NCBI GenBank assembly: GCA_024761205.1
Contig: JAMASS010000011.1
Location: 62,001-126,000 of the forward strand
Direction of reading: 5' to 3'
DNA from: Limisphaerales bacterium
Lineage (GTDB): Bacteria; Verrucomicrobiota; Verrucomicrobiia; Limisphaerales; AAA164-E04
DNA length: 64,000 nucleotides
In this document: piece after piece, positions 1 through 60,685 of the stretch
Layout: each line of letters opens with the position of its first letter
How positions within the stretch are numbered: the first letter of the stretch is position 1
Notes under the pieces: model-generated
Databases searched by the model: none
The model's input: only the letters and a program-made list of their open reading frames with translations
What the model was told of the DNA's origin: nothing
Made by a program: the position numbers and the translations under genes

Positions 1-1674
1 CCGGGTGAAACCATTAAACTCATCGCAACCTGAAGAACCGTTGGGAATCCACCGCCCCACAGCACGGGTCTACCCTGGTTGTCTTCTTCAATTGGATTCC
101 ACGCGCCAAGTAAATCATCGGCACTCTCTAACACAAAACCCCTAGCGTTCGCATCCCAGCTCAGGATCACGTCGCTTCCAGTGATCTCAATAGTCAATGA
201 CGGCATCACGGCGAGGCAAGGCGCCAAAACCTCGCTCCCCATCGATCCATAGGCATCCATAATCACCTTGGGAGCTTTGCTTCCCCTGATTCACCTGACG
301 ACCACCGCCATTGGGAGCAATCTTCGCAGTCGCTCCGTTAAAATCAGATGTTTCCGAAACGTGTCCTGTCGCTGTGGTGCCATAGTGGTAGTGATCCGAA
401 AACGACTCATTCTTGATCCGCAAAATCGGCACCTACGGTTTGCAGCAAGGTTCCCGGAATCGAAACACCAGAGCCCTTTGATTGGCAACCTCCAGGCACC
501 GGAATCCCGACTGCGGAAAGACCGCCAAGGGCAGCGATTTCATCCGCACTCATTGCGCCGTTGCGAAGCTGAATCGGCCCTGAGGTAGACCGTGCTCTGC
601 TCGTTGTCGCTCCCGTCCTGAAAAAGATCCATTCAGGTCCCAGCGAAAATCGCAAACCGAGAGCATTCCCACTAATGTCGGAGCGATGCAGGACTGACGC
701 ACCCGGAACTTGAAACCCGACGAAGTGAGATCGAACAAAAACTCTCGACCATCCAAATAGGCTAAGGTGATCAAATGCACGGAACCGGACGCCAACAAAC
801 CGAGCAGACCATAGAAAACGACGGTAACACCGCCCATCTCCACGACCTCGGCGTTCACCACCTAGCCATCAAACGAAAGCAAAACTTCCGGCACTGACGC
901 GCTCGATCCTTACTGCTGCATCACCTAACCAGGAATCAGACTGCGGACGAATGTTTCCGCCACCGCGGTCGTTTCAACCCCAAAATTGTCGATCCAACGA
1001 TGTCACGAGCAGAGGCGGCCGACTCTTCGGTGCCCGCACCAAAACCAAAGCGCCCGGCAACCAGCGTGTAACCGATGGCCGCCTCATCAAAGACTCTGAC
1101 CCCATCGTAAATCACGTCCAGAGCGCCGTTGGAATTCAAACTGACTTTAACATCCACGAGCCGATCCCCCGCTCGAATTCCATCAAACCACTGCGCCACA
1201 ACCTTCGCTCCGCCGAGGCACACAATGATCCCGGAGAGCCTCGCCAATCTCATTTCCCTCCGTAGCGCTCTGTAGACTGACCCGGACGGCAACCGCATCA
1301 AACGAAACAACCAAACCCAGCACCTCTCCACCCGCTTTGCGAAAAGGCACTTCCACCTTTGCGATCTCCAGATCAAAAACAAAGCTGAATCCCTGCGAAG
1401 GACATTCCGGCCCACCGCCGACTCGGGCTTGAAAACGCGCACGGAACGACGCCACCCACTGCCCACCATCAATGTCCCAAAATACATACGGACCAGGTAG
1501 CGAAAGAGGCGCAAAACCGGACTCCAGATCCTCCAAATCCGTCAACTTGAGAACCCCTTGATCCACCTTAGCATGCCCGAGAGCCAACTCCTGTTCGCTA
1601 AAAAAGTCGTCACTGATTGAGCTGGCCAAAAGTGCCAGAGGACTGACGGCCACAGCCATCAACACAATCTTCAT
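1..1674 (-). pseudogene. Secreted LamG-like protein, frameshifted, 3' end outside window
   Basis: The start at 1674 gives a short hydrophobic signal sequence (MKIVLMAVAVSPLALLASS) followed by a beta-rich region (ISDDFFSEQEL, then GPYVFWDIDGGQWVASFRAR). The reading then moves through several minus-strand frames without a long ORF: one carries AGDRLVDVKVSLNSNGALDV, another the LamG-type ending RNGAMSADEIAALGG. The last in-window stretch reads DVILSWDANARGFVLESADD, a module that commonly closes LamG exoproteins of Verrucomicrobiota. I infer an extracellular concanavalin-like binding protein that is now broken in at least three places. Its true C-terminus lies beyond base 1. The LamG call rests on motif style, and the ligand is unknown. 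Confidence 0.6.
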
Positions 1675-1764
1675 AGATAGAAACCACATCCGTCTTATCA
1701 CATCTAAACATCGCATGAACGCGACAAGCCTAACGACTTATAAGGTGGATGACAAAGTGAGCAC

Positions 1765-2006
1765 TTAGCCGCCCACTTCGATGTTCCCCAAAACGGGATC
1801 AACCAAATCATCACAGATGTTGCCAATGCCATCAGCGTCAATATCGAGCTCATCAGGATTAGCGGGCAGTTGTCTTCGGCATTTTCGATGCCACCTCCAT
1901 CAATGGCCGAGCCGCAAGCCTCTCCTAAGCCATCCCCATCGGATTGATCGGAATTGCTAAGTTCCGGACAGTTGTCCGCATCGTTTCCAACTCCATCTCC
2001 ATCCAC
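1765..2006 (-). pseudogene. Thrombospondin type 3 repeat fragment
   Basis: The minus strand reads MDGDGVGNDADNCPELSNSD, the calcium-binding D-x-D-x-D-G plus DNCP pattern of thrombospondin type 3 repeats. A second repeat breaks after EDNCP, and the frame one base over continues as NPDELDIDADGIGNICDDL and stops at 1765. This is therefore a frameshifted C-terminal piece of a surface protein whose upstream part is missing. It lies just upstream of the LamG pseudogene on the same strand and may belong to the same lost gene cluster. The family call is firm and the parent protein is unknown. Confidence 0.6.
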
Positions 2007-2073
2007 GCCCAGAGACCACGCAAGTCACCAATCCTCCCCCTCAAGAGCCATTTGCCCCAGGGTCTGGACATCC

Positions 2074-2132
2074 TTCTCCAGAAAAATCGCCTAAAACAGC
2101 AAATTCCAAAAACTAAATCAGAGCTTCTCTAG
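2074..2132. repeat. Dispersed 59-bp repeat, copy 1
   Basis: This stretch aligns without gaps to 50552-50610, with about 80 percent identity counted by hand; the core AACTAAATCAGAG is identical. Read on the minus strand, both copies contain the last codons and stop of a small ORF (ending LEKL here, LGKL in the other copy) followed by about 45 bases of similar downstream sequence. It may be the 3' end of a duplicated gene or a mobile-element edge. Confidence 0.5.
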
Positions 2133-2139
2133 TAAAATT

Positions 2140-2790
2140 CGAAAGTGATTCAGCATGTCTCTACCCAAGATTCCAGAAGGCTGGTCAATCAATAAGAATC
2201 ATCCACGAATACACTTACCGAGCAACAACATCGCGAGATCAGCCGCCACTGCGGACGATTGTGATCCATTAAATCCTTGGAGTTGCTATGATTTTCCAGT
2301 TGCGTGTTTTGTTCCCGTCTCCTTTAGAACCCCGGACGGGATCAAAATTCAAGTCAACGCCAGTATCCAAGAGCAGAGGTGCTGGGGCTCACGTTTGATC
2401 GATTCGTAAGACGTCACCCCAACCTAATTGTTAGCGACAGTCATTCGTCAGTCTTCCATGTCTCTCGGATGAGCGAGCTTGGGACTCTCAACGCGCGCTA
2501 CTTCTGGACTGCTATCTGGCACGACAATGATCACTCGTGTCCGATTCGGGAGACACAAGATCATCTTTCAACCGAATCTGGCCATCTTCCACAAAAGCTT
2601 CAAATGCCGAAGGTCCCAACATGAATGCAAGCCTAACGCAGCACCCGTTGAATCTCACTCAATCTCAAAAAATGCCATACTCTCTTGGCGTTGTTCTTGC
2701 TGAGGCGGAACTTGTGAGTTAGAAGCACGAAGCACAGTTGAGGCAGGATACGAGTGAAGGTTGTCAATCCTGTCTAAACTCTCTTTCTGT
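2140..2790. other. Stretch without an assignable gene
   Basis: Overlapping short ORFs occur on both strands, for example 2155-2409 on plus and one starting near 2621 on minus (MLGPSAFEAFVEDGQIRLKD). None has a recognisable domain, and all are quickly interrupted. The minus frame leads into the repeated 3' end at 2074-2132, so this is most likely the wreck of a small minus-strand gene. No function can be assigned. Confidence 0.3.
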
Positions 2791-2797
2791 GTCCAGC

Positions 2798-3427
2798 TCA
2801 CCACCAATCGCGCGATCCCGACTGGGTGGCAGTTGGCTTCTTGGTCAAAAATGGGGGGGGAATTGAAAGAATTCCACATGACTGTCGCTGAAGAGCATAT
2901 TCTCATGGCGTTGGTGATTCCACTTGTGCCAGACGCTTTTGAGATCATTGTGGTCTCGGTTTCCAGCCCAAGGCTAGTCGCCTTGGATGATTTTGACGGT
3001 GGCGCAAGCTGATTTCTGTCCCTTAGCAGCTCTTTTCACGTCTATGCCTGCGGGCTTGGCAAAAGCGTCTCCCTTGTCCGCAGGACACCCATGGACGTCC
3101 TTCGATGAATAAGTATTCAAGGGACGTTGATCCGCGTGAACATCTCCGCCGATGCCACGACCATAGGCGCCGCTGCTATGTTCGCCGCTATTTCCTTGCT
3201 TGCCGCCACCGAACGCCCCGCTGGTTTGGGTGGAATAGAAATCCTCGTTGTCGCCAACATACATCTGATGGAGGTTCGAGGCGTATTTGATCTGCTTGGT
3301 TTTGCATTTTGCCGTGCCGAGCGCGAGCAACAGCATGCCTGCCAAAAATAGCGATAATCGCAATGACAACGAGCAATTCGATGAGTGTAAAACCCTGCTT
3401 TGTGAATTTTGAATCGATTGTCATCAT
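2798..3427 (-). pseudogene. Type II secretion/pilin-like prepilin (H-X9-DG family), frameshifted
   Basis: The start at 3427 gives MMTIDSKFTKQ followed by GFTLIELLVVIAIIAI, the classical prepilin N-terminus: peptidase cleavage after the Gly, Phe at +1, Glu at +5 and a hydrophobic helix. The frame then shifts near 3345 and continues as LAGMLLLALGTAKCKTKQIK. A third segment carries NHQRHENMLFSDSHVEFFQF, matching the C-terminal H-X9-DG module of the short pseudopilins abundant in Planctomycetes and Verrucomicrobia. The final frame ends in an aromatic WW before the stop at 2798. At least two frameshifts make the product non-functional. The intact family members are membrane-anchored pseudopilins. 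Confidence 0.8.
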
Positions 3428-3639
3428 CTGGTATTTAATTATGGATTGTCTGCTCCTTGGAGACAGTGCGGACAATGTAATTGACGTATGGCAGTGTTCT
3501 CCTTCGCGACTCAGAATCATAGCCTGTGTGCATTGCACCGAGGTGTCTCGTGTCCTTGGTTGTGATGGCGGATTTGGCTGAGGTCGCGTTATCTGTCGAG
3601 GAGGCATTTCAAGGTATCCGGTGTGAGGATCGATGTTTC

Positions 3640-4195
3640 CGCTTCGGGATAGGCGTTAGTAAATGTCCGCGGGTGGTGAAGCGCGATCCTCTTCCTGAGG
3701 TAATGTCGGCCGGGTACATGCCGTAGACCAATCATGTGTGAAGGAGCCGGCGGGTTTTGATGGCTATCTTTCTGCTGCGAAGTTCGCCTAAAGAAATTGA
3801 GTGCAGATGGAATTCGAACTCTCGTCCTGTAAGCGGCTTTACGGTTTGATTGGCTAACTCGAATGAGAACGAATCGGTCGACACCACCCCTGCGTGTTCG
3901 GCAGGGTGTCCGTTGCTGGTTTGAGTGTCAGGCCGATGTCTCGAATCTGTTGGGCTTCGTCGATGACGACGAGTTTTGCGCTGCCGAAGAAGTGGTTGAG
4001 TTCTGTTGAGGTCTTCTATTCCAGTGCTTGGCGGATGTCGGGCTCATCGCAGTTCAGATAGGCGGAGGAACCGTCGAACCAGGCCATGAGCTTCCGAACT
4101 AGCGTCGTTTTTCCGACCTGTCGAGCACTGTAGATGATGAGAATCTGTCCCTCGAATTGGCTTCCAATACCGGAAGTAGCGTTCGCGCGGTCACA
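3640..4195 (-). pseudogene. AAA ATPase of the DUF4143 type, with nonsense codons and frameshift
   Basis: The minus strand reads FEGQILIIYSARQVGKTTLV (P-loop), then AYLNCDEPDIRQAL, an in-frame stop, and KLVVIDEAQQIRDIGLTLKP (Walker B plus sensor region). A neighbouring frame continues STDSFSFELANQTVKPLTGR and EFEFHLHSISLGEL, which match the region linking the ATPase core to the DUF4143 domain. A second stop follows before LVYGMYPADI. The order of segments is that of the AAA_14/DUF4143 family, whose cellular role is poorly defined. The C-terminal DUF4143 half is missing. There is no long ORF here, so the ORF track does not show this gene. Confidence 0.75.
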
Positions 4196-4216
4196 ACCGC
4201 GTAAATAAAAAAGTTA

Positions 4217-4237
4217 CGCAATTAGGATTTAGAGGCT
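4217..4237. repeat. Short dispersed repeat, copy 1
   Basis: CGCAATTAGGATTTAGAGGC matches 36570-36590 (CGCAACTAGGATTTAGAGGC) with one difference over 21 bases. Both copies lie at the edge of a decayed gene. It could be a leftover element end or a shared untranslated segment. Confidence 0.4.
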
Positions 4238-4261
4238 TAATGGGTTGGAATGAAATTGCTG

Positions 4262-4525
4262 TGGGGATGAATTTGATTAAGGGCATGGAAAAATTTTCCC
4301 GATCAACCGCGCTGCATTAACCACTTGGAGAGCATTCGCCCCCAATATCCGCTTTGCCAAAGCAAGCGCGTGGCCCGCAAGCGGGTGTTGTAACAGATTG
4401 AGCGGTGGAATTGCCGTGCCTGCCGCAACAGCTTCAACGTGCTTTCGGGGATCATCTTTCAAAAGACAAAAATCCCATTGCCAAAATGGTTCACCACCAT
4501 CGCCCTGGCTGCCCAAAATAATTAC
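4262..4525 (+). pseudogene. IS1595-type transposase, N-terminal fragment
   Basis: Plus-strand frames together read RWNCRACRNSFNVLSGIIFQ then KTKIPLPKWFTTIALAAQ. This matches the second half of the zinc ribbon (C-x-x-C) and the following helix of IS1595-family transposases; the full copies at 18 kb and 46 kb have the same arrangement (SFNVLAGTLFKKTRVPLQKW). The first cysteine pair is blurred by a frameshift. The catalytic DDE part is absent because the sequence switches directly into a MacB-like permease fragment. It is a dead remnant. Confidence 0.65.
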
Positions 4526-4539
4526 CTCATCGGTTGCTT

Positions 4540-4790
4540 GGTCGATGACATCAAAGAGCGGGTCCGCGACACCCATCTCAGCGAAGGGATGATTGCAGGG
4601 TTGAGTTTGCTGGTGAGAGGGATTGGGATCATGAACATTATACTCGCGAGCATCAATGAACGGATTTTGGAGATTGGGGACCTATAAGGCGATTGGGGCA
4701 ACTAGACCGTTAATCTTCATGCAGATACTCATGGAGGGGTTGGTCTCGGCTGTGCAGTGCCTTTTGGTGGGACTGACCGCATCCTTTGAG
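4540..4790 (+). pseudogene. MacB-type ABC permease (FtsX domain), C-terminal fragment
   Basis: The reading LLVRGIGIMNIILASINERI followed, after a stop, by KAIGATRPLIFMQILMEGLV corresponds to the conserved segment of MacB permeases around the third transmembrane helix and the following loop. The intact permease at 40.8 kb has [20 protein letters not shown] at the equivalent place. The piece is joined in the same orientation to an IS1595 transposase fragment just upstream, a chimera left by deletion. The ATPase and periplasmic parts are absent. Confidence 0.7.
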
Positions 4791-4904
4791 AAACGAAAGA
4801 ATCGAGAACAAACCCGGACAACGGAACGGCAACCCGAGCAAAACCCTGCGTCAAAACCTCGCTGCGCTTGGCTGAAGACTCTCGTTATTTCTTCAACGCC
4901 CCCG

Positions 4905-5590
4905 CTTCTCGAGACTTGAGAACCGCCTCGCAAATGTCCGGCAGGACAAGCAGCGGGGTGCCGTGGGCAATTTCCATCGCCAACCGACTTTTTGCATGAA
5001 ATCGGGATTGCTTGAGCCCAACGTCCATCGGGCGCCAAACCACCATACTCGCCATCCCCAAGCAACTGTTGTATTCATCAGTCATCAAATGGGCCTTGTC
5101 CACTCATTCACGCCCAACAGCACGGAGAAGCCTTCCCTTGAGCTTGTCCCCGGCCGCCAGCCGATCACCGGTGTTTTATCGAGGACACCCTCTCCCCGTT
5201 CGTTCGGCTGCCCCGGTGGTGGTGGCCTTTCCTTGGGCTTGCCGCCGAGATATCCACGGTCCCGGAACGCAACCGCTGATGATCCGTTTGGGGTGCATCG
5301 CTTGGTGCATCTGCATCGAGATACGCCCGGCGGCGTTTTTATTCACCTTCAAATCGGGCTAACTGCAAGCCCTTCTTGCCGCTCAAGATGAGCGAGACGG
5401 CCAAAAACCACTGATGCAACGGCGGATTGACTGTGATGAAAGCCCCTCCCCCACCGGGCTGCTCCCGAGGGGCGCACGCAATCCGCTTGCGTCGGAAACT
5501 GATTGAACCTGTCCGAACCGCCCACAACCTGAAACCACTCGAATAGAATGATTCCAAAACAGCCACCACCTTCTAGGAAATTCTGAGCCA
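4905..5590 (-). pseudogene. IS1595-type element remnant (second lineage), with an unidentified tail
   Basis: On the minus strand 5440-5590 is nearly identical to 48402-48510, and 5090-5275 to 48545-48765. Readable protein pieces are LHQWFLAVSLILSGKKGLQL (helix-turn-helix region of IS1595 transposases) and GGKPKERPPPPGQ followed by DKTPVIG. A small deletion has removed the DETY catalytic segment that is present in the 48.5-kb copy. After TDEYN the sequence leaves the transposase and reads into an unrelated ORF (MVVWRPMDVGLKQ, ending at about 4905) that I cannot identify. The element has no recognisable terminal repeats here. Confidence 0.6.
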
Positions 5591-5839
5591 TTTTTCTGCC
5601 CGCAATTTTGGTCGATCTTTCGATATTCCTCCTCGACCCGGCACCGTGAGACGGCTGTTTCTGAGAGGTATGTTACTTTCCAACTCATGAAGCCTTCTCG
5701 TCGACCTTGTGCGGGTTCTGTTTCGCGAAGCGGCCTCCTTTAGCTTTGAGCGCAAGCGAAGACTCGGGCGAAGTCGCTCGACGATAAAGCTGTCATTTCG
5801 CCATGATGGCGAGTTTCCGCCTTGTGTGGGTGGCGGTCC

Positions 5840-6390
5840 CAGTTCGCCGAATTTCAAGGTGCAGAATCTCGGATTCATGTCGGATATGGCAGCGAGTCTC
5901 GATGACCGTGTCCATTTGTTGCAAGGCATGGACTGACTACACCGGGAGTTGGAAGGCGATGAATTGATGAGTGCGATGGACCGGCCTAGTCAACGGGCGG
6001 TCACGATGTTGAAGAGACTCAAGGCTGGTCCGTGAGGCATTCGACCGCGCGCGAACCGACGCGCTCGTGCGGGATTGTTATGGCTGGAATGCCTACAGTT
6101 AGCACGGATGGCTGGCGCGTCGATTGGTCGAAGCCGTCTGTCCGTTTGTCACGATGGTGTGGGAGAATTCCTATCCGGAGAAACCGATTCTCAAGGCCTG
6201 CAATTGGGATTCGCACCCGGTGAATTGCGATATCTTTGAGGATGCGCGTTGGCGTTTTCCGGCCTATGATCAGGCGGTTACGGCGTTGATCGAAGATTTT
6301 TACGATCGTGGGATCGACCAGCGGGTTCTGTTTGGTTCGTGACGGGTAAGTTTGGCCGAACGCCTCGTATTGAGAAGTGGCTAAGGAACC
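5840..6390 (+). pseudogene. DUF1501 family protein, fragmented
   Basis: Successive plus-strand frames read FKVQNLGFMSDMAASLDDRV, then ELEGDELMSAMDRPSQRAV, then RLVEAVCPFVTMVWENSYPE, CNWDSHPVNCDIFEDARWRF and VTGKFGRTPRIEK. These match the central and C-terminal half of DUF1501 proteins, alkaline-phosphatase-fold secreted proteins common in Planctomycetes and Verrucomicrobia and usually paired with DUF1549/DUF1553 cytochrome-type partners. No partner is seen here. At least three frame changes and a stop interrupt it, and the N-terminus with its Tat signal is missing. The biochemical role of the family is not settled. Confidence 0.7.
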
Positions 6391-7859: not shown

Positions 7860-10250
7860 ATGGCACCAGGCGGCAAGAGCGTTGTTGATATCCTTGAGGT
7901 TTCCGCGGGACCAAAGGAGCCCCAAACAGCCGCACAAGAAAGCATTCCCAAACAAATCCCCATCCTGGGCCTATCCGATATCGTCATTTTCCCGGGAATG
8001 ATCGCGCCCCTGCTGATCGAATCCGCTGAAGGAGGCCAGCTCATTAATGATGTTGTCGCCGGAAACCGCTACCTCGGCCTGGTTCTTCAGAAAAACGCTG
8101 AGGCTGAAAATCCGACTCCGGATGATCTCTGGGAACACGGCTGCCTTGCGCGCATTCAAAAGATGGTCAAGGGTCCTGAGGAATCTGTGCGGATCCTCAT
8201 CGAAGGTCTTGAGCGCTTTAAAATCAAACACTATGTCACGCTCGAACCTTATCTGATTGCCACCCTCAAAGTCCTCCCGGTAAAAGCCGAGGATTCTCCG
8301 GAAATCACCGCTCTCATCCGAACAGCAAGGAAACAGTTCGAACGCATTGCCGAGCTTTCCAGTTCCATTAACGAGGAGGCCAAGCTTGCCATCCTCAAAC
8401 ACGAAAATCCGGGCCTCATGACTGACCTCATGGTCGGCAACCTCAATGTTCAACTCGATGATCAGCAATCGCTGCTGGAAACCTGCTCGGTCAAGGAGCG
8501 GCTCAATCTGCTCCTGCCCCTCCTCAGCCGCGAATTTGAGGTGCTGAAGCTCGGTTCTAAAATCCAGAAAGACGTCTCTGCAGCCATGTCCAAAAGCCAG
8601 CGAGATTTCTTCCTCCGCGAACAAATCCGCGCCATCCAGAAAGAACTGGGTGAAACGGACCCAACCACGTCTGAGCTCAACAGCCTCCGCGAACAAATGA
8701 AAGCCAAGGGCCTGACCCCAGAAGCCAGAACCGTCTGCCTCAAGGAATTGGACCGTTTGCAACGCATCCCCTCGTCGACAGCCGAGTACACAGTCGCTCG
8801 AAGCTATGTCGAGTGGTTAATCGAGCTGCCGTGGAGTCAGTCCACACCCGACAAACTCGACCTCGACACGGCGGCGGAGCTCTTAGACGCCCAACACCAC
8901 GGTTTAACCAAGGTTAAGGAACGACTTCTGGAGTTTTTAGCTGTCATCAAACTCAAGAAACATTTGAAGGGGCCGATCCTTTGCCTCGTCGGCCCCCCGG
9001 GAGTCGGCAAGACCTCCCTAGGCATGAGCGTTGCCAGTGCCCTCGGGCGGAAATTCGCTCGAATCGCCCTAGGCGGCATGCGGGACGAGGCGGAAATCCG
9101 TGGCCATCGACGGACTTATGTCGGCGCCCTCCCCGGCCGCATCATCCAGTCGCTCCGGCGTCTGCAGAGCAATAATCCCGTAATCCTGCTGGACGAATTT
9201 GACAAGATGAGCGCCGATTTGCGTGGCGACCCCGCTTCAGCACTTTTGGAAGTCCTGGACCCGCAGCAAAACGCCAACTTCACGGATCACTATCTAGACG
9301 TCCCCTTCGACCTCTCCCGAGTTCTCTTCATCACCACCGCGAATTGGATTGATCCCGTTCATCCGGCGCTTCAAGACCGAGTAGAAGTGATTGAACTCCC
9401 TAGCTATACTCAAACCGAGAAGCTGCTCATCGCCAAACGTCACCTCATCCCCCACCAACTCAGCGAGCACGGTCTCAAAAAATCCCAAGTCAAATTCGGT
9501 AACCCGGTGATCAAGCGACTCATCAGCGGCTACACCCGCGAAGCCGGTGTTCGACAATTGGACCGTCAAATCGCCAGCGTTACCCGAAAAGCAGCCAAGC
9601 ATTTCGCCACTCGGAGTCGTGCTAAACCCATTACCATCTCCAATCAATGGTTGACAGACAAACTCGGTCCCGACCGCTACCACTACGAAACGGCAGAAAT
9701 CATCAACGACAGCGGCATCGCTGTCGGTCTGGCATGGACGCCTTCCGGAGGTGAGATTCTCTACATTGAAGCCACTCAACTCCCGGGCCGCGGTAACTTG
9801 ATCCTGACCGGTTCCTTAGGCGACGTCATGAAAGAAAGCGCTCAAGCCGCGCTGACATTCCTCCGCAGCCAAGCCGTTGCACTCAATCTCAAAATTGAAA
9901 ACGTAGACAAGCAAGACATCCACATCCATGTCCCGACAGGCGCGACCCCCAAGGATGGCCCGAGCGCCGGCGTCGCCATCGCCGCCGCCCTCGCCTCGCT
10001 CTTCACCCGGCGGCGGATTCGGTCCGACGTCGCCATGACCGGCGAAGTCAGCCTGCGAGGCCGAGTGCTCCCCGTGGGCGGCATTCGCGAGAAGGCCCTG
10101 GCAGCCTTCCGCTCGGGGTTCAAGACCCTCCTCATTCCCGACCGCAACCGAAACGATTGGCGAGAAGTGCCCGACGAGGTGAAAAAGCGGGTTAAAGTAC
10201 ATTTCGTCAAACAAGTCTCCGACATCATTCGTCTAAGCCTGTTGAAATGA
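7860..10250 (+). CDS. lon: ATP-dependent protease Lon
   Basis: At 796 residues this is full length for a LonA-type protease, a cytoplasmic AAA+ serine protease that degrades misfolded and regulatory proteins. The N-terminal substrate-recognition domain (about 30-230, PILGLSDIVIFPGM) is followed by a helical linker, then the ATPase with Walker A GPPGVGKTSLG near residue 377 and Walker B PVILLDEFDKM. The C-terminal protease domain has the catalytic Ser in PKDGPSAGVAIA (about residue 701) and the catalytic Lys in GIREKALAAFRSG (about 744). The start at 7860 gives about 30 residues before the conserved domain. It overlaps the next gene by ATGA, so the two are translationally coupled. No damage is seen. 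Confidence 0.97.
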   Translation: MAPGGKSVVDILEVSAGPKEPQTAAQESIPKQIPILGLSDIVIFPGMIAPLLIESAEGGQLINDVVAGNRYLGLVLQKNAEAENPTPDDLWEHGCLARIQKMVKGPEESVRILIEGLERFKIKHYVTLEPYLIATLKVLPVKAEDSPEITALIRTARKQFERIAELSSSINEEAKLAILKHENPGLMTDLMVGNLNVQLDDQQSLLETCSVKERLNLLLPLLSREFEVLKLGSKIQKDVSAAMSKSQRDFFLREQIRAIQKELGETDPTTSELNSLREQMKAKGLTPEARTVCLKELDRLQRIPSSTAEYTVARSYVEWLIELPWSQSTPDKLDLDTAAELLDAQHHGLTKVKERLLEFLAVIKLKKHLKGPILCLVGPPGVGKTSLGMSVASALGRKFARIALGGMRDEAEIRGHRRTYVGALPGRIIQSLRRLQSNNPVILLDEFDKMSADLRGDPASALLEVLDPQQNANFTDHYLDVPFDLSRVLFITTANWIDPVHPALQDRVEVIELPSYTQTEKLLIAKRHLIPHQLSEHGLKKSQVKFGNPVIKRLISGYTREAGVRQLDRQIASVTRKAAKHFATRSRAKPITISNQWLTDKLGPDRYHYETAEIINDSGIAVGLAWTPSGGEILYIEATQLPGRGNLILTGSLGDVMKESAQAALTFLRSQAVALNLKIENVDKQDIHIHVPTGATPKDGPSAGVAIAAALASLFTRRRIRSDVAMTGEVSLRGRVLPVGGIREKALAAFRSGFKTLLIPDRNRNDWREVPDEVKKRVKVHFVKQVSDIIRLSLLK

Positions 10251-10993
10251 CTCGTTTAACGGGAACCTTGGCCGCCCTTATCTTGCTGGGCGCCTTTCAT
10301 CACTCCGCCGCCCAAGAAACCCTCAGCTCGGGACAGCGGTTGGCTCGCGAAATGCGGCGCGCCCAACTGCTGAACTACGAGAAAATCAGCGGCTCACTCC
10401 GCACCAGAGGACGCCGAGGCAAGCGCTCCTCCCAAGACATCGTCCTCAGCACCCACACCCGCGAGGAGCAGTGGCGGAGCATTTTCAGCGTGACGGATCC
10501 CAACACCGGCAACCTCACCCGGCTGACAATCGTTCGCGGTCCCAAGCAACCCCCCCGTTATTTTTTGACCCAAAACCCGAAGGACGTGAACGATCCGGCC
10601 ACAGCGCTCGAAGTCGCGTCCGAGGAGGCGATGGTGCCATTGGCCGGAACCGATTTCTGGCTGGCGGACCTTGGACTGGAATTCTTCTACTGGCCCGAAC
10701 AAACCATCCTGACCAACGCCAGAATCAAAATGCGGAAGGGAATTTCCTGCTTCGTCCTCGAAAGCCGCCGGGAACCGGCAACCCACGCCGGTTACAGCCG
10801 CATCCGGTCGTGGATTTCGCGAAAACACGGCGGGCTGATTTACGCCGAAGCCTATGATTCCAACGGCAAACGCATCAAGACCTTCGAAGTCTCGGACGTG
10901 GAGAAAATCAACGGCGAATGGAAACTAAAAGAACTCCGCATTCGCGACGAAACGGCAAAGTCGACGACCCGCCTATCGTTTGACAACGAGTAG
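10247..10993 (+). CDS. LolA-like outer membrane lipoprotein-sorting protein
   Basis: This 248-residue protein has a signal peptide (LAALILLGAFHHSAAQ) and the long beta-sheet pattern of periplasmic lipoprotein-sorting proteins of the TP_0789/LolA-like group. Signature segments are GTDFWLADLGLEFFYWPEQ in the middle and ISRKHGGLIYAEAYDSNGKR near the end, where the family forms the strands that cup the lipid. The gene starts inside the lon stop (ATGA overlap). Members are thought to carry lipoproteins or lipids between membranes, sometimes with a partner exporter; no partner is adjacent here. The role in lipid handling is inferred from family membership. Confidence 0.8.
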   Translation: MTRLTGTLAALILLGAFHHSAAQETLSSGQRLAREMRRAQLLNYEKISGSLRTRGRRGKRSSQDIVLSTHTREEQWRSIFSVTDPNTGNLTRLTIVRGPKQPPRYFLTQNPKDVNDPATALEVASEEAMVPLAGTDFWLADLGLEFFYWPEQTILTNARIKMRKGISCFVLESRREPATHAGYSRIRSWISRKHGGLIYAEAYDSNGKRIKTFEVSDVEKINGEWKLKELRIRDETAKSTTRLSFDNE

Positions 10994-11039
10994 ACGGCAG
11001 TGGAGGGCGCGTCGCCCAAAGCAGTTCGGCGACACGTGC

Positions 11040-11589
11040 TCAGGCGGCAGTCACTGAACTGAAGGACCGGGACGGCGCTATTCTGGAAAGGCTTCCCCTA
11101 GCAACACCTTCAGGTCGGCTTCTATCTGCCGTTCCTGCGCCAATGAATGCCTCTATCTGCATCCGTATTTCTTCCTGTCGTTGCAACGCTTCGTTGAGGT
11201 TAGCTTCCGCCTGCCATCGTCCCACCGATTCCGATGATATGGCCCATGTCCATTACGGCCCTGATTTCAGGATCGTCGAACATGAATTTCATGAGTTCCT
11301 TCTCTTCCTCACTTAAACCCTCTTCCTCCGCTATCTGATCGAGTATTGTCTGCCATCGGTTCTCTATTTCGGTGTCGAGAAGCAAGCGGTCAGTTTCGTC
11401 CATGCCGTCGAGATAGGCGTCGGCCTTCATTTGCGCCCAAAGGATTCGATCTTCTTCGGGAAGTTCCGCCAGCATTTGTTCGCGTAACGTCCCCACAGCG
11501 GGCATGGCGCCGAGAGGGTCGAGGAAATCAAGGTTCGCGGCGGGTAAGTCGTTCGGCTCTTCGGGCGCTGGTTCGGGAAGGGCAGTCAT
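11040..11589 (-). CDS. Unrecognised acidic helical protein, frame probably shifted near 11210
   Basis: The main ORF (11200-11589, 129 residues) is Glu/Asp-rich and helical: REQMLAELPEEDRILWAQMK, then EEEGLSEEEKELMKFMFDD. It ends in GIGGTMAGGS. An overlapping ORF one frame over (11040-11225) continues the helical style with RWQAEANLNEALQRQEEIRM and is probably the true C-terminus after a frameshift. The frame is also open upstream of 11589 (REIRHQQVRKRQEAKRQAQA) as far as the stop of the neighbouring gene, without an ATG, so the start is uncertain. No known domain is evident. It is the last gene of the minus-strand cluster at 11-14.7 kb. Confidence 0.45.
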
Positions 11590-11682
11590 TTCCGCTTGGG
11601 CTTGCCGTTTGGCTTCTTGGCGTTTTCGTACCTGCTGGTGCCGGATTTCGCGTTTTTGAGACCGCGATTCCGCATCTCCAAG

Positions 11683-12745
11683 CTAGTGGGGTGGGTTATA
11701 GAGCAAAACAAATATGACACCACCAAATGCTGCTAAAGGAGCAATCCATTCTGCAATGAAGTTCAGTGCATAAAAGAGAAGGCTTTTCCTCTCCTTTTTC
11801 ATGGTTTGAGTGATTTTTTCCGTGCCGGTGAAAGGGTTTTCTAGCCTTGTCCTTGCTTGCGTGCGGTCTCTTCCTTCGAAGAGATCTACGACGATGCCCT
11901 CCCGCTGTTCTCGCTGCGTCCGCAATCTGTCAATGGCGTCGTCGATCCTGCTCACGGCCGCTGATTCTTCACAGCTTCGATCGCCTTCACAAAATCCGCC
12001 CCTTTCATCGTGATGGTCTTCGGCTTCGTTCAGTTCTCCGTTCAAAAAAACCCAGCAAATGGCTTGGTTTTTGATGACATCTATCGAGCACAACGGCCTT
12101 ACATATTTTTTGAGCGCCTTTTTTGCTTTATCCCTCCCTTTGTCGAGCAGCTTGTTTTTAGCCGTTTTGCTTAGCGCATTGAAATTGGATTGGCCGTAAG
12201 CGGCTACTTCAGAGTAATATGCATTTCTCCACCACGGCACCCATCGCACAGCCACTTCAGCGCCGACGCAAATTGCAACTTCAATGTGGATATTTCGGAT
12301 GCAGCCATCGTAGTCGTCCCAAGCGTCCCACTTGTCTTTCGACATTTGAGAGGCAGACCTTGATTCGCATAGCCAGTAACGGGTCCAAATACCATTCAGG
12401 CCGCTGAGATGCGTTTTCCAAGCGGGGCGTTGCCATTGCCCAATGAAACACTACGTGCCATCTGTCATCATACCAATATACTTCGCATACTTGACCGAGG
12501 TCTGAGGAGCCGAAACATTCAATTTCCAGAAGAAGCGGTTGGCATTCAGGGAGGCTGCGAGCAGCGGGCAGGCAGTGACGGTTCCAATGGTCATGGATTT
12601 CCCAAAGGCCAGCAAGATAGCCGAGGCCGTTTGTTTACCGAGACCAGCGGAAAAGGTTTTCCGTATCCGATGCGTCGGCGAAGCGCGCCGTGACGAGCAC
12701 CAGAGCAGCCCCGCCCGTTCAATCTTCCCGCTGTGCCTTGTGCTC
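11683..12745 (-). pseudogene. Unknown secreted/membrane protein, interrupted by TAG at 12451
   Basis: Two minus-strand ORFs in the same frame are separated only by a TAG codon at 12451-12453 (MMTDGT, stop, CFIGQWQRPAWKTH). The downstream part (11683-12345) has WDAWDDYDGCIRNIHIEVAI, a basic helical region and one C-terminal hydrophobic helix (AEWIAPLAAFGGVIFVLLYN). In a second frame the start of the region reads GGAALVLVTARFADAS, closely resembling GGGALALITARFAAAS at the start of the gene at 14.7 kb, so the two are paralogues at their N-termini. One frameshift and one nonsense codon therefore break this copy. Translation could restart at 12345 and yield a 220-residue membrane-anchored protein. 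No function is known. Confidence 0.5.
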
Positions 12746-12814
12746 GCCAACGACAAAAAAGCCCGCCCCGGAAACCACCGGAGCGGACGGGAAACGCGAA
12801 CCCATTCTAAAGCC

Positions 12815-13004
12815 CTACAGCTCAACACTCAGCCATTTGCGAAGCAACTCCTTCAAAAACTTGATGACTTCCTCCCGCTCGCTATAGAGATAGAAAGTCC
12901 CCCCCGCCGTAGAACACAATAAACAGATACCAAGCGTAAACTTGGCTGGCACCAGGCATCGTTTCACGGTAAGTCAACTTTATCTTCTCCCTCTTCTTCT
13001 TCAT
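12815..13004 (-). pseudogene. Small protein gene with frame break at a G8 tract
   Basis: The start at 13004 has a strong Shine-Dalgarno (GGAAAGGAGT, 5 bases upstream of ATG). The product begins MKKKREKIKLTYRETMPGAS and has an aromatic hydrophobic segment (QVYAWYLFIVFYGGG). At a run of eight G the frame is lost; changing the run by one base in the right direction restores TFYLYSEREEVIKFLKELLR and a stop at 12815, giving about 62 residues. The run may be a slippage site, a sequencing error or a fixed mutation. The gene is too short for the ORF track. It lies between the membrane coiled-coil gene and the broken secreted protein, all on the minus strand. Confidence 0.45.
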
Positions 13005-13057
13005 GGGTGACTCCTTTCCGGCACCACGGTTGACGGAAAAGACAAACGATGGCTGGA

Positions 13058-13705
13058 CTACCGGAATTTGGAAGCACTGAGCATCTGAAGGAGAATCGAT
13101 CGTTCCACTGATTTTCTCATCTCCTCCTTTGCATTATGCTCCTTCAGCACTTGATTCACCTGCCCTCGCATTTCAGCAGGCAATCCCTCCATTGACCATG
13201 CGAACATGGTTTCCAACCGTTCATTCGTTTTGCTCTCCAACTCAGCTAAACCGTCTTCATCCAGCGACGCGCGAAAATCTTCGATTGATTTCATCATCAC
13301 AGCGTGTTGTGATCGAATAGCTTCCGACAGTTGCGACTGCGTGTCTTCCGTCAAAAGTCCCTCATCCCCGCCGCAACAGGGAACTGAATCCCTTGCCGCT
13401 TCCCATTCCACCGACGCTTTCTCTGCCTCCACCAGCTTGTCAATCGCTCGGCGGTTTTTGGCAGTTGCCCCCCACATCAAGCCCCGCAAATGCTCAGTCT
13501 CCTCTCGCAATGACTTCAAATCTTCAGTCGCCTTGGCCAATTTCTGATTCAAGGAATTCGCCAGCCGCATCTCCATTGCAGCCACCTCTCTCTTAAGTCG
13601 CTTGTCATCCCGCTGCCCTTGCTTGAAGAAAACAAAGGCCGAAACGACGGAAAGAATCATCAATAGCGCCAATACGCCAACAATCAAATACTGAATCGCT
13701 TTCAT
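13058..13705 (-). CDS. Membrane-anchored coiled-coil protein, family not recognised
   Basis: I take the ATG at 13705 as the start because an AAAGGA ribosome-binding site precedes it and the product then begins with a clean membrane anchor (MKAIQYLIVGVLALLMILSV). The longer 13810 start would place this helix internally. The rest of about 215 residues is a long amphipathic coiled coil with the heptad-rich segments LKREVAAMEMRLANSLNQKL and LAKATEDLKSLREETEHLRG, broken by a short CCGG motif, then a second helical block ending MLSASKFR. It has no catalytic signature. The layout (one N-terminal helix, periplasmic or cytoplasmic coil) suggests a structural or scaffolding role, which is inference. 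The gene itself appears intact. Confidence 0.65.
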   Translation of the reverse strand: MKAIQYLIVGVLALLMILSVVSAFVFFKQGQRDDKRLKREVAAMEMRLANSLNQKLAKATEDLKSLREETEHLRGLMWGATAKNRRAIDKLVEAEKASVEWEAARDSVPCCGGDEGLLTEDTQSQLSEAIRSQHAVMMKSIEDFRASLDEDGLAELESKTNERLETMFAWSMEGLPAEMRGQVNQVLKEHNAKEEMRKSVERSILLQMLSASKFR

Positions 13706-13727
13706 TTTCTTTATCCTTTCTCTACTC

Positions 13728-14704
13728 TTAGTTGCAACCTGAGTATTGATAAATGCACCAATCCAACTGAGCGTCACCCTCAATCCACGCCCAGTGAATT
13801 CGGTAGGCAAGTCTGTTAATACATCCTTGACGATTACTGTTCAAAACAACGACGCAAGCACCCGTACAGGCCCAGTAACCTCCAAAACCATTACGCCAGT
13901 CAGTTCCACACTTAGTGGTGCACCAAAGATACGTGCTCCAAGCACTATTATCACAAATAATCGACTCACCAGTTGCGGCAGTGATTTCGGCAGCCACCGC
14001 AATTCTAACCTTATCGACACATTTTTCGAACGCTTCTTTAGGCCCACCATCTACGCAGCATTTCCATCCCTCACTATAAAAGTCAGTACTAGGTTGGTAA
14101 TACAGTTGAGGATGGTTCATAACCTGAATTGTGTAACTACCTTTATATAATACGATCCCGTCACAGTCTCGCACCGAGGTTCCATCGCAGGGTCAATATC
14201 CGGTTCGTCGTCATCGTCGGGCGTGTCGTCCGGATCATCCCCGTCGTTGGGGTCGTCATTGCCGTCGCCATCTTCGGGAGGGGCGGGATTGTGTCCGTCA
14301 ACGGTATCTCCGTAGAGCTCCTCAAGTTTATCGCACGGTCCCCAGACGTAAACGCAGACGCCATCGGAGTCCCAATCCAATCCTGAAGGTACGTTCGAGG
14401 GCCGTGTTCCGTCGTTTGGGTAGCCTGCGGGGACATCCAACTCGACTTCACATTCACCGCCTCCAACCGGGACAACATCCGCTGCGTTAACCGACCCGGG
14501 GGAAAACGCCACCGCGCCGACGATGATAGTCCTTCCCATGTGCGGCAGGATAGCCGCGACCCTTTGCCTCGTCCAGCGGAAAAGCGTTGTGAACGAATTG
14601 CGGAAAAGGTTTCCCGTTTCCGATGCGGCGGCGAATCGCGCCGTGATGAGAGCCAGAGCGCCCCCACCCATATAGCCCGCCAACAAAAAGTGCGTTTTAT
14701 TCAT
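13728..14704 (-). pseudogene. Secreted protein with Asp-rich linker and Cys-rich domain, frameshifted
   Basis: The ORF starting at 14704 begins MNKTHFLLAGYMGGGALALI and carries an export-like helix (MGRTIIVGAVAFSPGSVNAA), a small Cys-containing domain (GGGECEVELDVPAGYPNDGT) and a long acidic linker (EDGDGNDDPNDGDDPDDTPD). In the last 58 bases another frame opens (VRDCDGIVLYKGSYTIQV) and runs to 13728 as a Cys- and Trp-rich domain (WCTTKCGTDWRNGFGGYWAC, WIEGDAQLDWCIYQYSGCN). The second frame continues more like a folded domain than the end of the first, so I read this as one secreted protein of about 325 residues with a frameshift near 14160. Two overlapping genes are the alternative. The family is unknown. 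Confidence 0.5.
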
Positions 14705-14837
14705 TGCGTTATGCTTCTAACTGTTTTGGATGTATTGCCAACGGCTCGGCGGAAAATTGGCGTCACTCGACACACAACGCCGGGCCATTGACAACACTTC
14801 GCAACTTCAAGCGTAGAAGGTTCTGCCTATTTGCCTG

Positions 14838-14871
14838 AGCTTAGGGGAAGTTGGCCAACTTCCCCTAAGCT
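14838..14871. repeat. 34-bp perfect palindrome in a divergent intergenic region
   Basis: The left arm AGCTTAGGGGAAGTTGG is followed directly by its exact complement, with no loop. Just outside, GCCTG and CAGGC extend the symmetry after a short spacer. It sits between the divergent genes starting at 14704 (minus) and 15161 (plus), so it is not at the 3' end of either. A regulatory operator, a cruciform-forming site or a mobile-element relic are all possible. Confidence 0.7.
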
Positions 14872-15160
14872 TGAAATCAGGCTGTTTTATTGAGCAGTGG
14901 CCCGACATGCGAGACGTTGCAATAGTGTTGTCGGGAGGGAGACTGCCTGAGCAGCGTTGGCACCGTCAACAGCAAATCGCGATTTTCCCAATTTTTTTGC
15001 GTAGCCGGGCCGGGGCAGAGGGAAAATGGTCAAAAAGAGCTATTCATCGGTGTTGTATCGGTTCAGTATCGAATATGTTTCGCATCAGTTGCGGTCAAGA
15101 AAGACGCCGAGAAGTTCATACTGCCGCCCGAAGCGGTCTTTCCGTTGGGAACCCGTAGCC

Positions 15161-16441
15161 ATGACCATCCGCAACGCCGCCCTTGACCTCATCTTCGCGG
15201 GAATCATCCTGGCGTTTGTGGTTTGGCTGATCGTCCGAAGCGTCTTGCGCGCCGAAGAGCCCAAGAAACATATTCTGCGACTGGTCTGTAGCATGGGCCT
15301 CGTCATGCTCACGGTCGCTGCTTGCGCCTTTCTCTTTGCCAAATTGGGACGCTTCGCGGCCTTCGCCGTGCCCTTCACCGTTGCGGCGTCTGGGATCTTG
15401 TTGGGCGTCATGTGGGCGTCGCGTCTGGGCGAAATCCTTGCGGCGCCGCTCTCCGGGCTGTTTGATGGCGGCAACGCCAAGGCATTCCGGCAGCCTCTCT
15501 ACGCCATCGCTGAAGCACGGCAAAAACGAGGTCGATACCAAGAAGCCATCACGGAAGCGCAAAAGCAACTTGAAGAATTTCCCGGCGACATTACTGGAAC
15601 TCTCCTCTTGATCGATCTATTCGCGAAAGACCTCGACCAAATCGAAGACGCTAAAGCAACGCTGGAGGCGTATCTTCAAAACGGTCCACACCATTCAAAA
15701 AACATCTTTCGCGTCCTAGCGCACATGGCTGACATCTATATCGAGAAATATTCCGATCGGGAAAGCGCCAAGAATTGTCTTGAATGCATTCAATCTCTCT
15801 GCCCTGGAACGGATCAGGAAATGATCGCAGCCCAGCGATTGGCCCACATGGGCTCAAGGGAATTCCTGGCGGCAAAAAAGCAACCTACCAAAATCATCGT
15901 CAAAGAGTTCGATCATCGGCTCGGGCTCCAAGGCAAGGAACCAGATTTCCAAAGGAATGAAAAATCACCTGACGAGCTAGCGAAAGAATACATTCAGCAA
16001 CTCAACGAGCACCCACTGAATCTCGAAGCCCGAGAGAACCTAGCGTTACTATACGCCAACCACTATCACCGCCTCGACATGGCGATCGAACAATTGGAAA
16101 CTATGGTGAACCACCGAAACCAATCAACTCGACAGGTTGTCCGTTGGCTCAACCTTATGGCCGATCTCCATATCAAACTTGGAGGCAACATCCGGGACGC
16201 CAAAAAATGCCTACAGCGAATCTCTGATCGCTTCCCCACCTCCGCCCACGACACTTCACTAGGATTGAATAGGAGATTCCCCGACATGATCGAGGCAAAG
16301 TACCGCCGGAGCGCTAGATGCGTTGTTCTTCCAGATCGTAGACGTCAAACCACCGATACACCGGCCGATTCCGCGGCACGAACTGCGCAATATAGCCTTC
16401 CAAAAACTCCTGCGCCTCATCTGGAAGTTCAGAAACTTTGA
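15161..16441 (+). CDS. Membrane protein with TPR repeats
   Basis: I start at the ATG at 15161 because the conserved part begins there; the ORF track extends to 15026 through a low-complexity leader. Three hydrophobic helices (LIFAGIILAFVVWLIV, LVCSMGLVMLTVAACAFLFA, AAFAVPFTVAASGILLGVMW) are followed by a cytoplasmic or periplasmic solenoid from about residue 120: QPLYAIAEARQKRGRYQEAI, then RENLALLYANHYHRLDMAIE and LMADLHIKLGGNIRDAKKCL. The TPR part probably scaffolds a complex. The last 45 or so residues (after SLGLNRRFPDMIEAK) are basic, unlike TPR sequence, and overlap the convergent DUF5069 gene by 128 bases, so the stop was probably lost by frameshift and the native end lies near 16270. 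The role is unknown. Confidence 0.7.
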   Translation: MTIRNAALDLIFAGIILAFVVWLIVRSVLRAEEPKKHILRLVCSMGLVMLTVAACAFLFAKLGRFAAFAVPFTVAASGILLGVMWASRLGEILAAPLSGLFDGGNAKAFRQPLYAIAEARQKRGRYQEAITEAQKQLEEFPGDITGTLLLIDLFAKDLDQIEDAKATLEAYLQNGPHHSKNIFRVLAHMADIYIEKYSDRESAKNCLECIQSLCPGTDQEMIAAQRLAHMGSREFLAAKKQPTKIIVKEFDHRLGLQGKEPDFQRNEKSPDELAKEYIQQLNEHPLNLEARENLALLYANHYHRLDMAIEQLETMVNHRNQSTRQVVRWLNLMADLHIKLGGNIRDAKKCLQRISDRFPTSAHDTSLGLNRRFPDMIEAKYRRSARCVVLPDRRRQTTDTPADSAARTAQYSLPKTPAPHLEVQKL

Positions 16442-17147: not shown

Positions 17148-17234
17148 GCAGCGATTTAGTAATACCGACCAACTGATTGCTTTGTTTACCAAAAAAATTC
17201 TTCGCAATGATAAATTATGGGCATGGAGAGCCTT

Positions 17235-17531
17235 CGGTGGCGAGGGGAAGCTGCGTCTGTTTGGAGCCGCGGGCGCGTTCGGTAGTTCGAAGCGGCATCC
17301 CTCCAATATGTCCGGCATGTTCAGGAGGTGCAGGCCGGGTAGCGTTTGCCATTGGCTCTTATGTCTCCGGCCATCGCCATCTCGCGGCTGAAGGTGGCTT
17401 TCCGGCGCGGCTTCAGTTTGTGCATGAGGATCAGGCTGACCATGTCGGCGTCTTCACCTTCTAAGACACCGCGCAGTTGGCGCACGACGCTGATATTGAC
17501 ATTCTTGCCGCCCTTCACTTCCAGCATCATG
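17235..17531 (-). pseudogene. Mrr-like C-terminal fragment of a DNA methyltransferase/restriction protein (copy A)
   Basis: Directly after the truncated transposase the frame reads MMLEVKGGKNVNISVVRQLR then GVLEGEDADMVSLILMHKLK. This has the E-V-K-G-G core (the ExK of restriction-endonuclease-like folds) and the layout of the C-terminal domain attached to some site-specific DNA methyltransferases. One frame over the domain ends as expected with MPDILEGCRFELPNAP. The methyltransferase half is absent. The same junction exists in copy B, so the fusion arose before the element was duplicated. Family assignment rests on remembered motif order and needs a profile search. Confidence 0.6.
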
Positions 17532-18188
17532 GGGCAGAGAATGCCCTTGCCGGACAGGGACTCGGCAACGCGAGGCGACAATCCCTTCCGCCCCGTTCTA
17601 CAGCAGCAATGACCGGAGTTTTACGGATGCCTCGGCCTCGTAAAACTCTGGGGGGGTATTAGTAGCGGGACTCTTGGGGCTGCTCCCTTTGCGCGGTTTG
17701 CCACCCACGTAAGTTTCGTCGGTCTCGGCGATGCCTTGCAGGACGGGCGCTGCTTCCGCCGCCATGGAAGCCCGAATGCGCCGCTGCAAGCGCAGGGCGG
17801 CGGGCTGCATCACCCCGAGGTCGCGGGCCAATTGGTGGCGGGATAAGCTCTTCTTGGCGTTGATCGGGATGCCCATAGCCATGAACTATTTCTGGAGCGG
17901 GACCCTGGTTTTCTTGAAAAGGGTTCCCGCCAAGACGTTAAAACCGGACTGGCAGACATGGCAGGGCCAGCGTCCAATACGGAGGTTGTCGGCTTTGCGG
18001 GCCACCTTGCCACTGCCGCAATGGGGGCAGTGAGGTTCATCGCCCCAGTGCGCCTGCTCCAAGTGCGCAAGGCAGGCTTTTTGATCCGGAAAGCGTTGGA
18101 ATATGGTCAACAGATTCACAAGCGCGCCCTCATCCGCACGCCCGAGGTGAAGCATCACCCGCTGCCAGTCATGCCCATAACTTATCAT
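17532..18188 (-). pseudogene. IS1595-family transposase, nonsense codon and frameshift (copy A)
   Basis: Starts at the ATG at 18188 inside the terminal repeat. It reads a zinc ribbon (CPHCGSGKVARKADNLRIG with WPCHVC further on), then SFNVLAGTLFKKTRVPLQ. The next Trp codon is TAG (17886-17888) where copy B has TGG. The second part gives AKKSLSRHQLARDLGV (helix-turn-helix) and ETDETYVGGKPRKGSSPKSP, with the first catalytic Asp. A shift near 17650 is needed to reach RKTPVIAAVERGG and then RVAESLSGKGI, where transposase similarity stops. The remaining catalytic residues of the DDE domain are missing because a different protein follows. It is inactive. Confidence 0.8.
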
Positions 18189-36590: not shown

Positions 36591-36832
36591 CAAAAAAGTT
36601 TGACATGGCAGCCCGGCCCTTTCATTTTTCCCTCCGTCATTTTGCGAGTAGGGACTCGGATGTCGGGGTACCTGCTGAATACAACAGCCTGATTCTAGTT
36701 GCTGGGTCGCTCCCAGTGCTAGTGAATAGGCAGGACTCTTGCACAACCTGCTCGCTAGTGACATGACCCGGCTTGATCCGGGGACGTGTCACTGGCGGGA
36801 AAGAAGTATGGAGTCCGCCCAGAGAGAGATTG

Positions 36833-48400: not shown

Positions 48401-48401
48401 A

Positions 48402-50536: not shown

Positions 50537-50556
50537 CCGGAAACTCGGTTTTTCTC
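50535..50556 (+). terminator. Possible weak intrinsic terminator after lpxB
   Basis: AACCGGAAACTCGGTTTTTC can fold as a 5-bp stem (AACCG/CGGTT) with a 6-base loop followed by T-rich sequence, immediately after the lpxB stop. The stem is short, so this is tentative. Confidence 0.3.
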
Positions 50557-56505: not shown

Positions 56506-56559
56506 GGAGTCAAATCCGGTATTCCGAAGAGAGCGCCGCCCAGCCAGTCAACGCGCCGC

Positions 56560-60651: not shown

Positions 60652-60685
60652 TTGCCCCCTCCGGTTTTGCAAGTCTCCCCACCTA

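What the first reader, a model, noticed from the sequence alone, without database searches (positions are those of the whole stretch)
11040..14704. Cluster of unrecognised exported proteins on one strand
Five adjacent minus-strand genes encode an Asp-rich plus Cys-rich secreted protein, a membrane-anchored coiled coil, a small aromatic protein, a protein with a C-terminal anchor and an acidic helical protein. None matches a family I know, two share N-terminal sequence, and similar pieces recur at 51-52.5 kb. This is the best candidate in the window for an undescribed envelope-associated system.
Basis: inference. Interest (0 to 1): 0.6.

Follow-up and report, generated by a model that had tools for sequence, protein, structure and literature searches.

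The report
RNA-led secreted/membrane gene pairs, decaying
The five odd genes are the worn remains of two copies of a two-gene unit (a secreted protein plus a membrane-anchored partner), and such units sit behind the same previously undescribed folded RNA leader at an estimated 60 places in this Verrucomicrobiota genome, which looks like a large, fast-changing arsenal of secreted proteins.

Summary
The block 10994-15157 (-) lies between lolA and a TPR gene that are adjacent in two same-genus genomes. It is not five genes. It is two copies of a two-gene unit: S, a secreted, variable, often Cys-rich protein, then M, a membrane-anchored helical protein. Copy 1 has S split by a frameshift and M intact; copy 2 has both broken. 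The claimed recurrence at 51-52.5 kb is not supported.

S-M units with unrelated S and M sequences recur across this genome and, for one M class, in related Verrucomicrobiota genomes. No protein matches Pfam, PHROGs, NCBIfam, PADLOC or PDB. In this genome they follow a ~145-nt structured RNA leader absent from Rfam. In 21 instances, 37 of 48 pairs show compensatory change (200 cells; shuffles 62). A model built without the window found a copy at 14934-14787, 83 nt before S1. In 800 kb of further sequence it found ten more, most followed by a signal-peptide ORF, several by M.

Most likely function, inferred: polymorphic-toxin-like secreted effector plus membrane immunity partner under common RNA control.

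The parts
14787..14934 (-). Structured leader RNA (three-way junction, ~145 nt), copy 1, 83 nt upstream of the S1 start codon; its apical hairpin is the perfect palindrome 14838-14871
   Evidence: Found by model R1 built without it: 37.4 bits, E 2.2e-6; R2 87.6 bits; R3 98.7 bits; the palindrome occurs once in the genome
14117..14704 (-). S1, N-terminal part: signal peptide and near-constant Asp-rich domain
   Evidence: ORF; 85% DNA identity over 317 bp to the paralogue on C14; third-position substitution bias
13728..14174 (-). S1, variable Cys-rich C-terminal part, in another frame (frameshift; continuous in paralogues on C24 and C45)
   Evidence: (E 1.8e-8 to C14); alignment score z 17 to the C14 paralogue
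13058..13705 (-). M1, intact: N-terminal TM, long coiled coil, flexible linker with PCCGGDE motif, C-terminal helical bundle
   Evidence: 7 family members in own genome; alignment A7; AlphaFold2 pLDDT 72, helices 2-95 and 120-214
12815..13004 (-). Small TM ORF, split by a frame change at a run of G
12761..12788 (-). Terminator-like hairpin with T run, end of unit 1
   Evidence: terminator-like sites in the region: 7 found, 5.4 expected
14600..14669 (-). 70-bp repeat, copy in S1 signal-peptide region
   Evidence: two copies only in the genome
12647..12716 (-). 70-bp repeat, copy at the start of unit 2
12451..12828 (-). Unit 2: remnant of an S signal peptide (..AFGKSMTIGTVTACPLLAASLNA), out of frame with the body
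   Evidence: compare SLPAFGKAIALGTVAF on C45 and LPALGKTLTTGILAIALLL
11800..12345 (-). Unit 2: Cys-containing S body, running in frame into M
   Evidence: not alignable to S1
11200..11799 (-). Unit 2: M gene (TM plus acidic helical domain) interrupted by one in-frame TAG at 11683-11685
36634..36765 (+). Second leader RNA in the window
   Evidence: R1 29.8 bits, E 2.3e-4; R3 70.6 bits
36773..37291 (+). ORF with signal peptide and C-terminal TM directly after the second leader RNA

Best explanation
Shown: the cluster is two decayed copies of a lineage-specific two-gene unit (secreted S, membrane-anchored M) present between lolA and a TPR gene that adjoin each other in sister genomes. Copy 1 stands behind a structured leader RNA that marks many such operons in this genome, with S and M sequences that differ from unit to unit. 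Inferred: the leader controls expression of S-M operons as a set. S is exported by Sec and acts outside the producer as a toxin-like effector. M is anchored in the producer's membrane and protects it from its own S. Units are copied, recombined and inactivated, S faster than M. In the window, unit 1 now has a broken S with an intact M, as expected of a kept immunity gene.
For: Constant 5' part, variable 3' part: C14, C24 and C45 share about 790-890 bp at 92-95% up to an abrupt break inside S. S and M change together: M class 2 follows S2, S3 and other S types in several genomes, and M class 1 and class 2 are unrelated. Integrity is lopsided: S broken with M intact at 6 loci (C3, C14, C24, C45a, C17, C78), both intact at 6 (C47, C26, C67, C45b, C2, C27), S intact with M broken at none (sign test about 0.03, counted by eye). 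G001 keeps M2-type genes without an S2 relative, some in tandem. Behind the same leader, loci C34 and C11 carry a secreted protein identical at 89% over 288 residues with different C-termini, followed by different tandem arrays of small genes, a polymorphic-toxin layout. RNA: 37 of 48 pairs with compensatory change, 200 cells against 62 in shuffles and at most 60 when slid. Prediction on unseen sequence; 14 of 23 instances have a signal-peptide-like ORF within 300 nt against 15% of random places (P 1e-6). Empty site.
Against: No S protein has a recognised toxin domain and no M a recognised immunity domain. The one S2 structure prediction failed (pLDDT 31) and M1 has no fold match. S might be retained on the surface by M rather than act on others. 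The leader was found only in this one genome, so S-M units elsewhere do without it. Regulation by the leader is inferred from structure and position alone. Assembly errors could add frameshifts, although neighbouring core genes are open.
Confidence: 0.5

Rival explanations
1. Surface-display variation: S is a surface-exposed protein held by its partner M, and the many units supply changing surfaces against phages, predators or competitors (antigenic-variation-like). The leader would select or balance which units are expressed.
For: S is exported and M membrane-anchored with long coiled coils; both diversify together; many units in one genome; Asp-rich low-complexity linker in S1 resembles a stalk.
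Against: Orphan M2 genes without an S2 relative and S-first decay are not expected if M only serves to hold S; the C11/C34 arrays look like toxin-immunity cassettes.
Confidence: 0.27
2. Cargo or debris of a mobile element: the unit is a passenger of an element whose conserved upstream gene ('MAKFLGIPNSGAQGGQVFSRNRFGQYTR', 262 aa) is multi-copy here and in two genomes of another family; S and M have no function for the cell.
For: The upstream gene is intact once and fragmentary at several S-M loci and reaches 18 or more copies each in G076 and G105; many copies are broken; the block is absent from its site in two same-genus genomes.
Against: No integrase, terminal repeats or target duplication were seen (not searched for systematically); no phage-collection or viral-contig relative; M frames stay open and constant S parts show third-position bias; in G076/G105 the loci read do not carry S-M; newly found units mostly lack that gene.
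Confidence: 0.15
3. The conserved leader is a structured DNA element (a recombination or transposition site) rather than an RNA regulator, and the unit order reflects cassette insertion behind it.
For: Compensatory changes do not tell RNA from single-stranded DNA; a variable apical hairpin above conserved internal-loop letters is also seen in recombination sites.
Against: Always on the sense strand of S at a narrow distance (83-89 nt in the four measured), as a 5' leader would be; no second site at the 3' end of units was found; outer helix changes freely while loop letters are kept, as in cis-regulatory RNAs.
Confidence: 0.08

Closest known systems
Polymorphic toxin systems with lineage-specific constant N-termini (MafA/MafB/MafI of Neisseria, Microscilla-N, Amoebophilus APD1/APD2; PMC3482391 section 37)
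   Same: Many secreted proteins in one lineage with a conserved N-terminal part and very variable C-termini, neighbouring partner genes, orphan and tandem partners, recombination at a constant/variable boundary
   Different: What is constant across units here is a structured RNA leader and a signal peptide; the Asp-rich constant domain occurs in five copies only. M lies downstream and is membrane-anchored. No known toxin or immunity domain. Maf genes sit in genomic islands; these units are scattered over many contigs.
Structured cis-regulatory leader RNAs (riboswitches and orphan riboswitch candidates in Rfam)
   Same: Conserved loop letters in a covarying junction at fixed distance before start codons of many operons
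   Different: Matches no Rfam 15 family; found in one genome only; precedes secreted-protein genes of unknown function; ligand or factor unknown
Secreted bacteriocin with membrane immunity protein
   Same: Small secreted protein gene followed by a membrane protein gene, S lost more readily than M
   Different: Sec-type signal peptides; S bodies of 130-400 aa; M with large helical soluble domains; no activity shown

Membership tests
Polymorphic toxin system | Constant N-terminal/trafficking part with C-termini that vary by recombination | tested here: met
   About 790-890 bp at 92-95% identity ending abruptly inside S; C11/C34 89% identical N-part, different C-termini
Polymorphic toxin system | Recognisable toxin domain at the C-terminus | tested here: not met
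   No Pfam/NCBIfam/PADLOC/PDB match for the S proteins searched; the caspase/CHAT-like motif at C11 is read by eye only
Polymorphic toxin system | Immunity gene next to the toxin gene | tested here: inconclusive
   M follows S at the loci read and outlives it but no immunity family matches (best Imm5, E 0.07 for one of 13 members)
Polymorphic toxin system | Orphan C-terminal cassettes and tandem immunity genes | tested here: inconclusive
   Present in layout at C34, C11 and C24, not at the window locus
Polymorphic toxin system | Toxicity and specific protection | not testable with these tools
   needs a bench test
Known Rfam RNA family | Covariance-model match | tested here: not met
   No match in 8 leader loci at E up to 1 (one lncRNA hit far below its threshold) nor at gathering thresholds in two more loci
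Cis-regulatory RNA (as a kind) | Covarying structure conserved upstream of start codons | tested here: met
   spacing 83-89 nt in the four measured
Cis-regulatory RNA (as a kind) | Changes expression in response to a ligand or factor | not testable with these tools
   needs in-line probing and reporter assays
Phage or prophage module | Relatives in phages or viral contigs | tested here: not met
   PHROGs weak only; viral contigs none for M1 and M2; upstream gene family absent from the phage collection

The most novel reading that the evidence does not exclude
A so far unknown class of structured leader RNA controls, as one regulon, an estimated sixty rapidly diversifying operons in a single Verrucomicrobiota genome, each with its own secreted protein and its own membrane partner, forming a new kind of secreted-effector or surface repertoire that no protein or RNA library covers.
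Probability: 0.4. Interest if true: 0.85.

Novelty: new variant of a known kind. Interest (0 to 1): 0.7.

Why it matters
If right, one bacterium devotes an estimated 60 operons, all behind one folded RNA, to secreted proteins that no database recognises, each with a membrane partner. That gives a handle on interbacterial conflict or surface variation in Verrucomicrobiota, where little is known, and a candidate regulatory RNA class whose signal can be tested directly. The leader RNA works as a search tag: it finds S-M operons that protein searches miss.

Tried and rejected
Five-gene operon: rejected, two broken units. Programmed frameshift between ORFs 14704-14117 and 14174-13728: both the window and C14 copies show the same frame offset, but the shift lies at different points and C24/C45 copies are continuous, so decay (or assembly error) is more likely. 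Recurrence at 51-52.5 kb: not significant. 70-bp repeat as a mobile REP element: only two copies genome-wide. 34-bp palindrome as a transposon end: occurs once and is the apical hairpin of the leader. Known protein or RNA families: none. Class-1 M outside this genome: none in 319 genomes of the order or in genome contigs. M1 and M2 as one family: no. S2 and S3 as one family: not shown. S2 structure: unusable. M1 fold search: no match. Leader in relatives: none in 319 genomes with strict filters, none in 593 kb of relatives' loci with the best model.

Full report
Setting. The window is G000:C3:62001-126000 of a 4.94 Mb, 92-contig genome. Its nearest named relatives are MAGs labelled Verrucomicrobia and uncultured Verrucomicrobiae. 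The block of interest lies on the minus strand between lolA (10247-10993, +, Pfam LolA_like) and a TPR gene (15026-16441, +). In two same-genus genomes (G002, G003) lolA and the TPR gene are neighbours about 115-190 bp apart, so some 4.1 kb has been gained here, or lost there.

What the five 'genes' are. ORF 14704-14117 carries the signal peptide and an Asp-rich domain, ORF 14174-13728 a Cys-rich domain in another frame. On contig C14 the same pair is again in different frames, but on C24 and C45 the Asp-rich and Cys-rich parts are one continuous frame. They are therefore two halves of one secreted protein, S1. The points of frame change differ between the window and C14, which speaks for decay or assembly error rather than a programmed shift. 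ORF 13705-13058 is an intact membrane-anchored coiled-coil protein, M1. AlphaFold2 gives one long helix (2-95), a floppy stretch around PCCGGDE and a helical bundle (120-214), mean pLDDT 72. A small TM ORF (13004-12815) and a terminator-like hairpin (12788-12761) follow. A second unit then begins: a signal-peptide remnant sharing 70 bp at 86% with S1, a Cys-containing body (12345 onward) that runs in frame into the TM start of a second M gene, and, after one in-frame TAG (11683-11685), the acidic helical rest of that M (11589-11200). The claimed likeness at 51-52.5 kb fails a shuffle test.

The unit is a family. Searching the genome with M1 gave seven members, none in 319 other genomes of the order. 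At the intact loci M is preceded by an S gene with a similar signal peptide but a very different mature part. Searching with the DNA upstream of S on C14 gave many more loci, among them C26, C27, C2, C34 and C67, whose S and M proteins are unrelated to those of the window. A second M class (A6/A10) has relatives in G001, G004, G007, G008, G009 and G075; at G004, G007 and G075 it directly follows a secreted-protein gene, so the S-M order exists outside this genome. G001 has M2-type genes but no S2 relative. The two M classes are not related by profile comparison. No member has a meaningful match in Pfam, PHROGs, NCBIfam, PADLOC or the PDB, and no relative was found in viral contigs.

Constant front, variable back. 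C14, C24 and C45 are 92-95% identical over about 790-890 bp that end abruptly inside S. In that constant part substitutions fall mainly on third codon positions. S is broken while M is open at six loci, both are intact at six, and the reverse was never seen (counted by eye). Two loci with the same leader, C34 and C11, encode a secreted protein whose N-part is 89% identical over 288 residues and whose C-part differs, each followed by its own tandem array of small genes, the arrangement that characterises polymorphic toxin loci (PMC3482391).

A structured leader RNA. The leader upstream of S is conserved at 76-95% and folds into a closed three-way junction. On the first eight copies 13 of 78 pairs show compensatory change (shuffles 6.6; slid structures 3-5). 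A covariance model (R1) built from those eight then found copies not used to build it: window 14934-14787, immediately before S1 (37.4 bits, E 2.2e-6); window 36634-36765; a second copy on C2 standing 88 nt before a new S gene; C67 and C78. The window copy has an unrelated perfect palindrome as its apical hairpin while keeping the loop letters. With 13 copies, 29 of 48 pairs covary (81 cells against 25.5 shuffled); with 21 copies, 37 of 48 pairs (200 cells against 62.1; at most 60 when slid), including all 13 pairs of the closing helix. These alignments are fitted to the model, which favours the structure, but the slid and shuffled controls on the same alignments stay far below. Rfam 15 has no matching family.

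The leader predicts S-M operons. In 800 kb of further sequence of this genome, taken without regard to content, models R2/R3 found ten instances, which extrapolates to about 60 per genome. Several are followed by a new S with a signal peptide and by a new M: one by a class-2 M (L195), others by unrelated TM proteins (L173, L190). Over 23 instances, 14 have a signal-peptide-like ORF within 300 nt against 15% of random positions (Mann-Whitney P 1e-6); several of the rest show eroded signal peptides. The leader was not found in 319 other genomes of the order with strict filters nor in 593 kb from relatives, including their S-M loci and 400 kb of G001, with the best model.

Function. Shown: exported S by signal peptides, anchored M, shared covarying leader, diversification, asymmetric decay, gain or loss at the window site. 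Inferred: S is a toxin-like effector, M its immunity partner, and the leader sets their expression. The main rival is surface display with M as holder. A decayed mobile element is less likely, though a conserved upstream gene of unknown function, multi-copy here and in two genomes of another family, deserves its own study. For the kind of system, the Maf toxins and the lineage-specific constant N-terminal effectors of PMC3482391 are the nearest; membership is not claimed because no toxin domain was recognised.

Limits. The genome is a draft, so some frameshifts may be assembly errors. The estimate of about 60 leaders is an extrapolation from 0.8 Mb. The S/M integrity count was by eye and after the fact.

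Noticed in passing
L046:8217-9005 (-); L083, L086, L088-L091: Protein family 'MAKFLGIPNSGAQGGQVFSRNRFGQYTR..' (about 220-260 aa) without any library match; intact once next to an S unit here, fragmentary at others, and in 18 or more copies each in G076 and G105, once near a DUF1376-like protein (by eye).
   Followed up: partly
L046 (C34) 1-6200, L047 (C11), L021 (C24) 9500-13800: Long mosaic arrays behind the same leader: secreted protein with swapped C-terminus, tandem 'YAFYDPPSRRMKAA' genes and tandem ~100-aa TM genes; C11 C-terminus reads like a caspase/CHAT-type peptidase (HG...GC).
   Followed up: partly
window 36634-37291 (+): Second leader RNA in the window followed by an ORF with signal peptide and C-terminal TM.
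   Followed up: partly
window 17227-18079 and 45215-46056; also C5 (L049) 1658-2078: An ~850-bp direct repeat, 94-97% identical, matched in part on C5; a nearby ORF looks like the tail of a DNA methyltransferase (by eye).
   Followed up: no
window 5069-5582 and 48400-48756: Inverted repeat of about 310 bp in three pieces, 90-98% complementary, 43 kb apart.
   Followed up: no
window 2074-2131 and 50552-50609, also C2: A 58-97 bp dispersed repeat (81-84% identity), one copy just after an lpxB-like gene.
   Followed up: no
window 52858-63821: Large proteins next to the 52-kb region with FG-GAP/ASPIC-like repeats (by eye); periodic 38-bp DNA repeats reflect the Asp-rich motifs.
   Followed up: no
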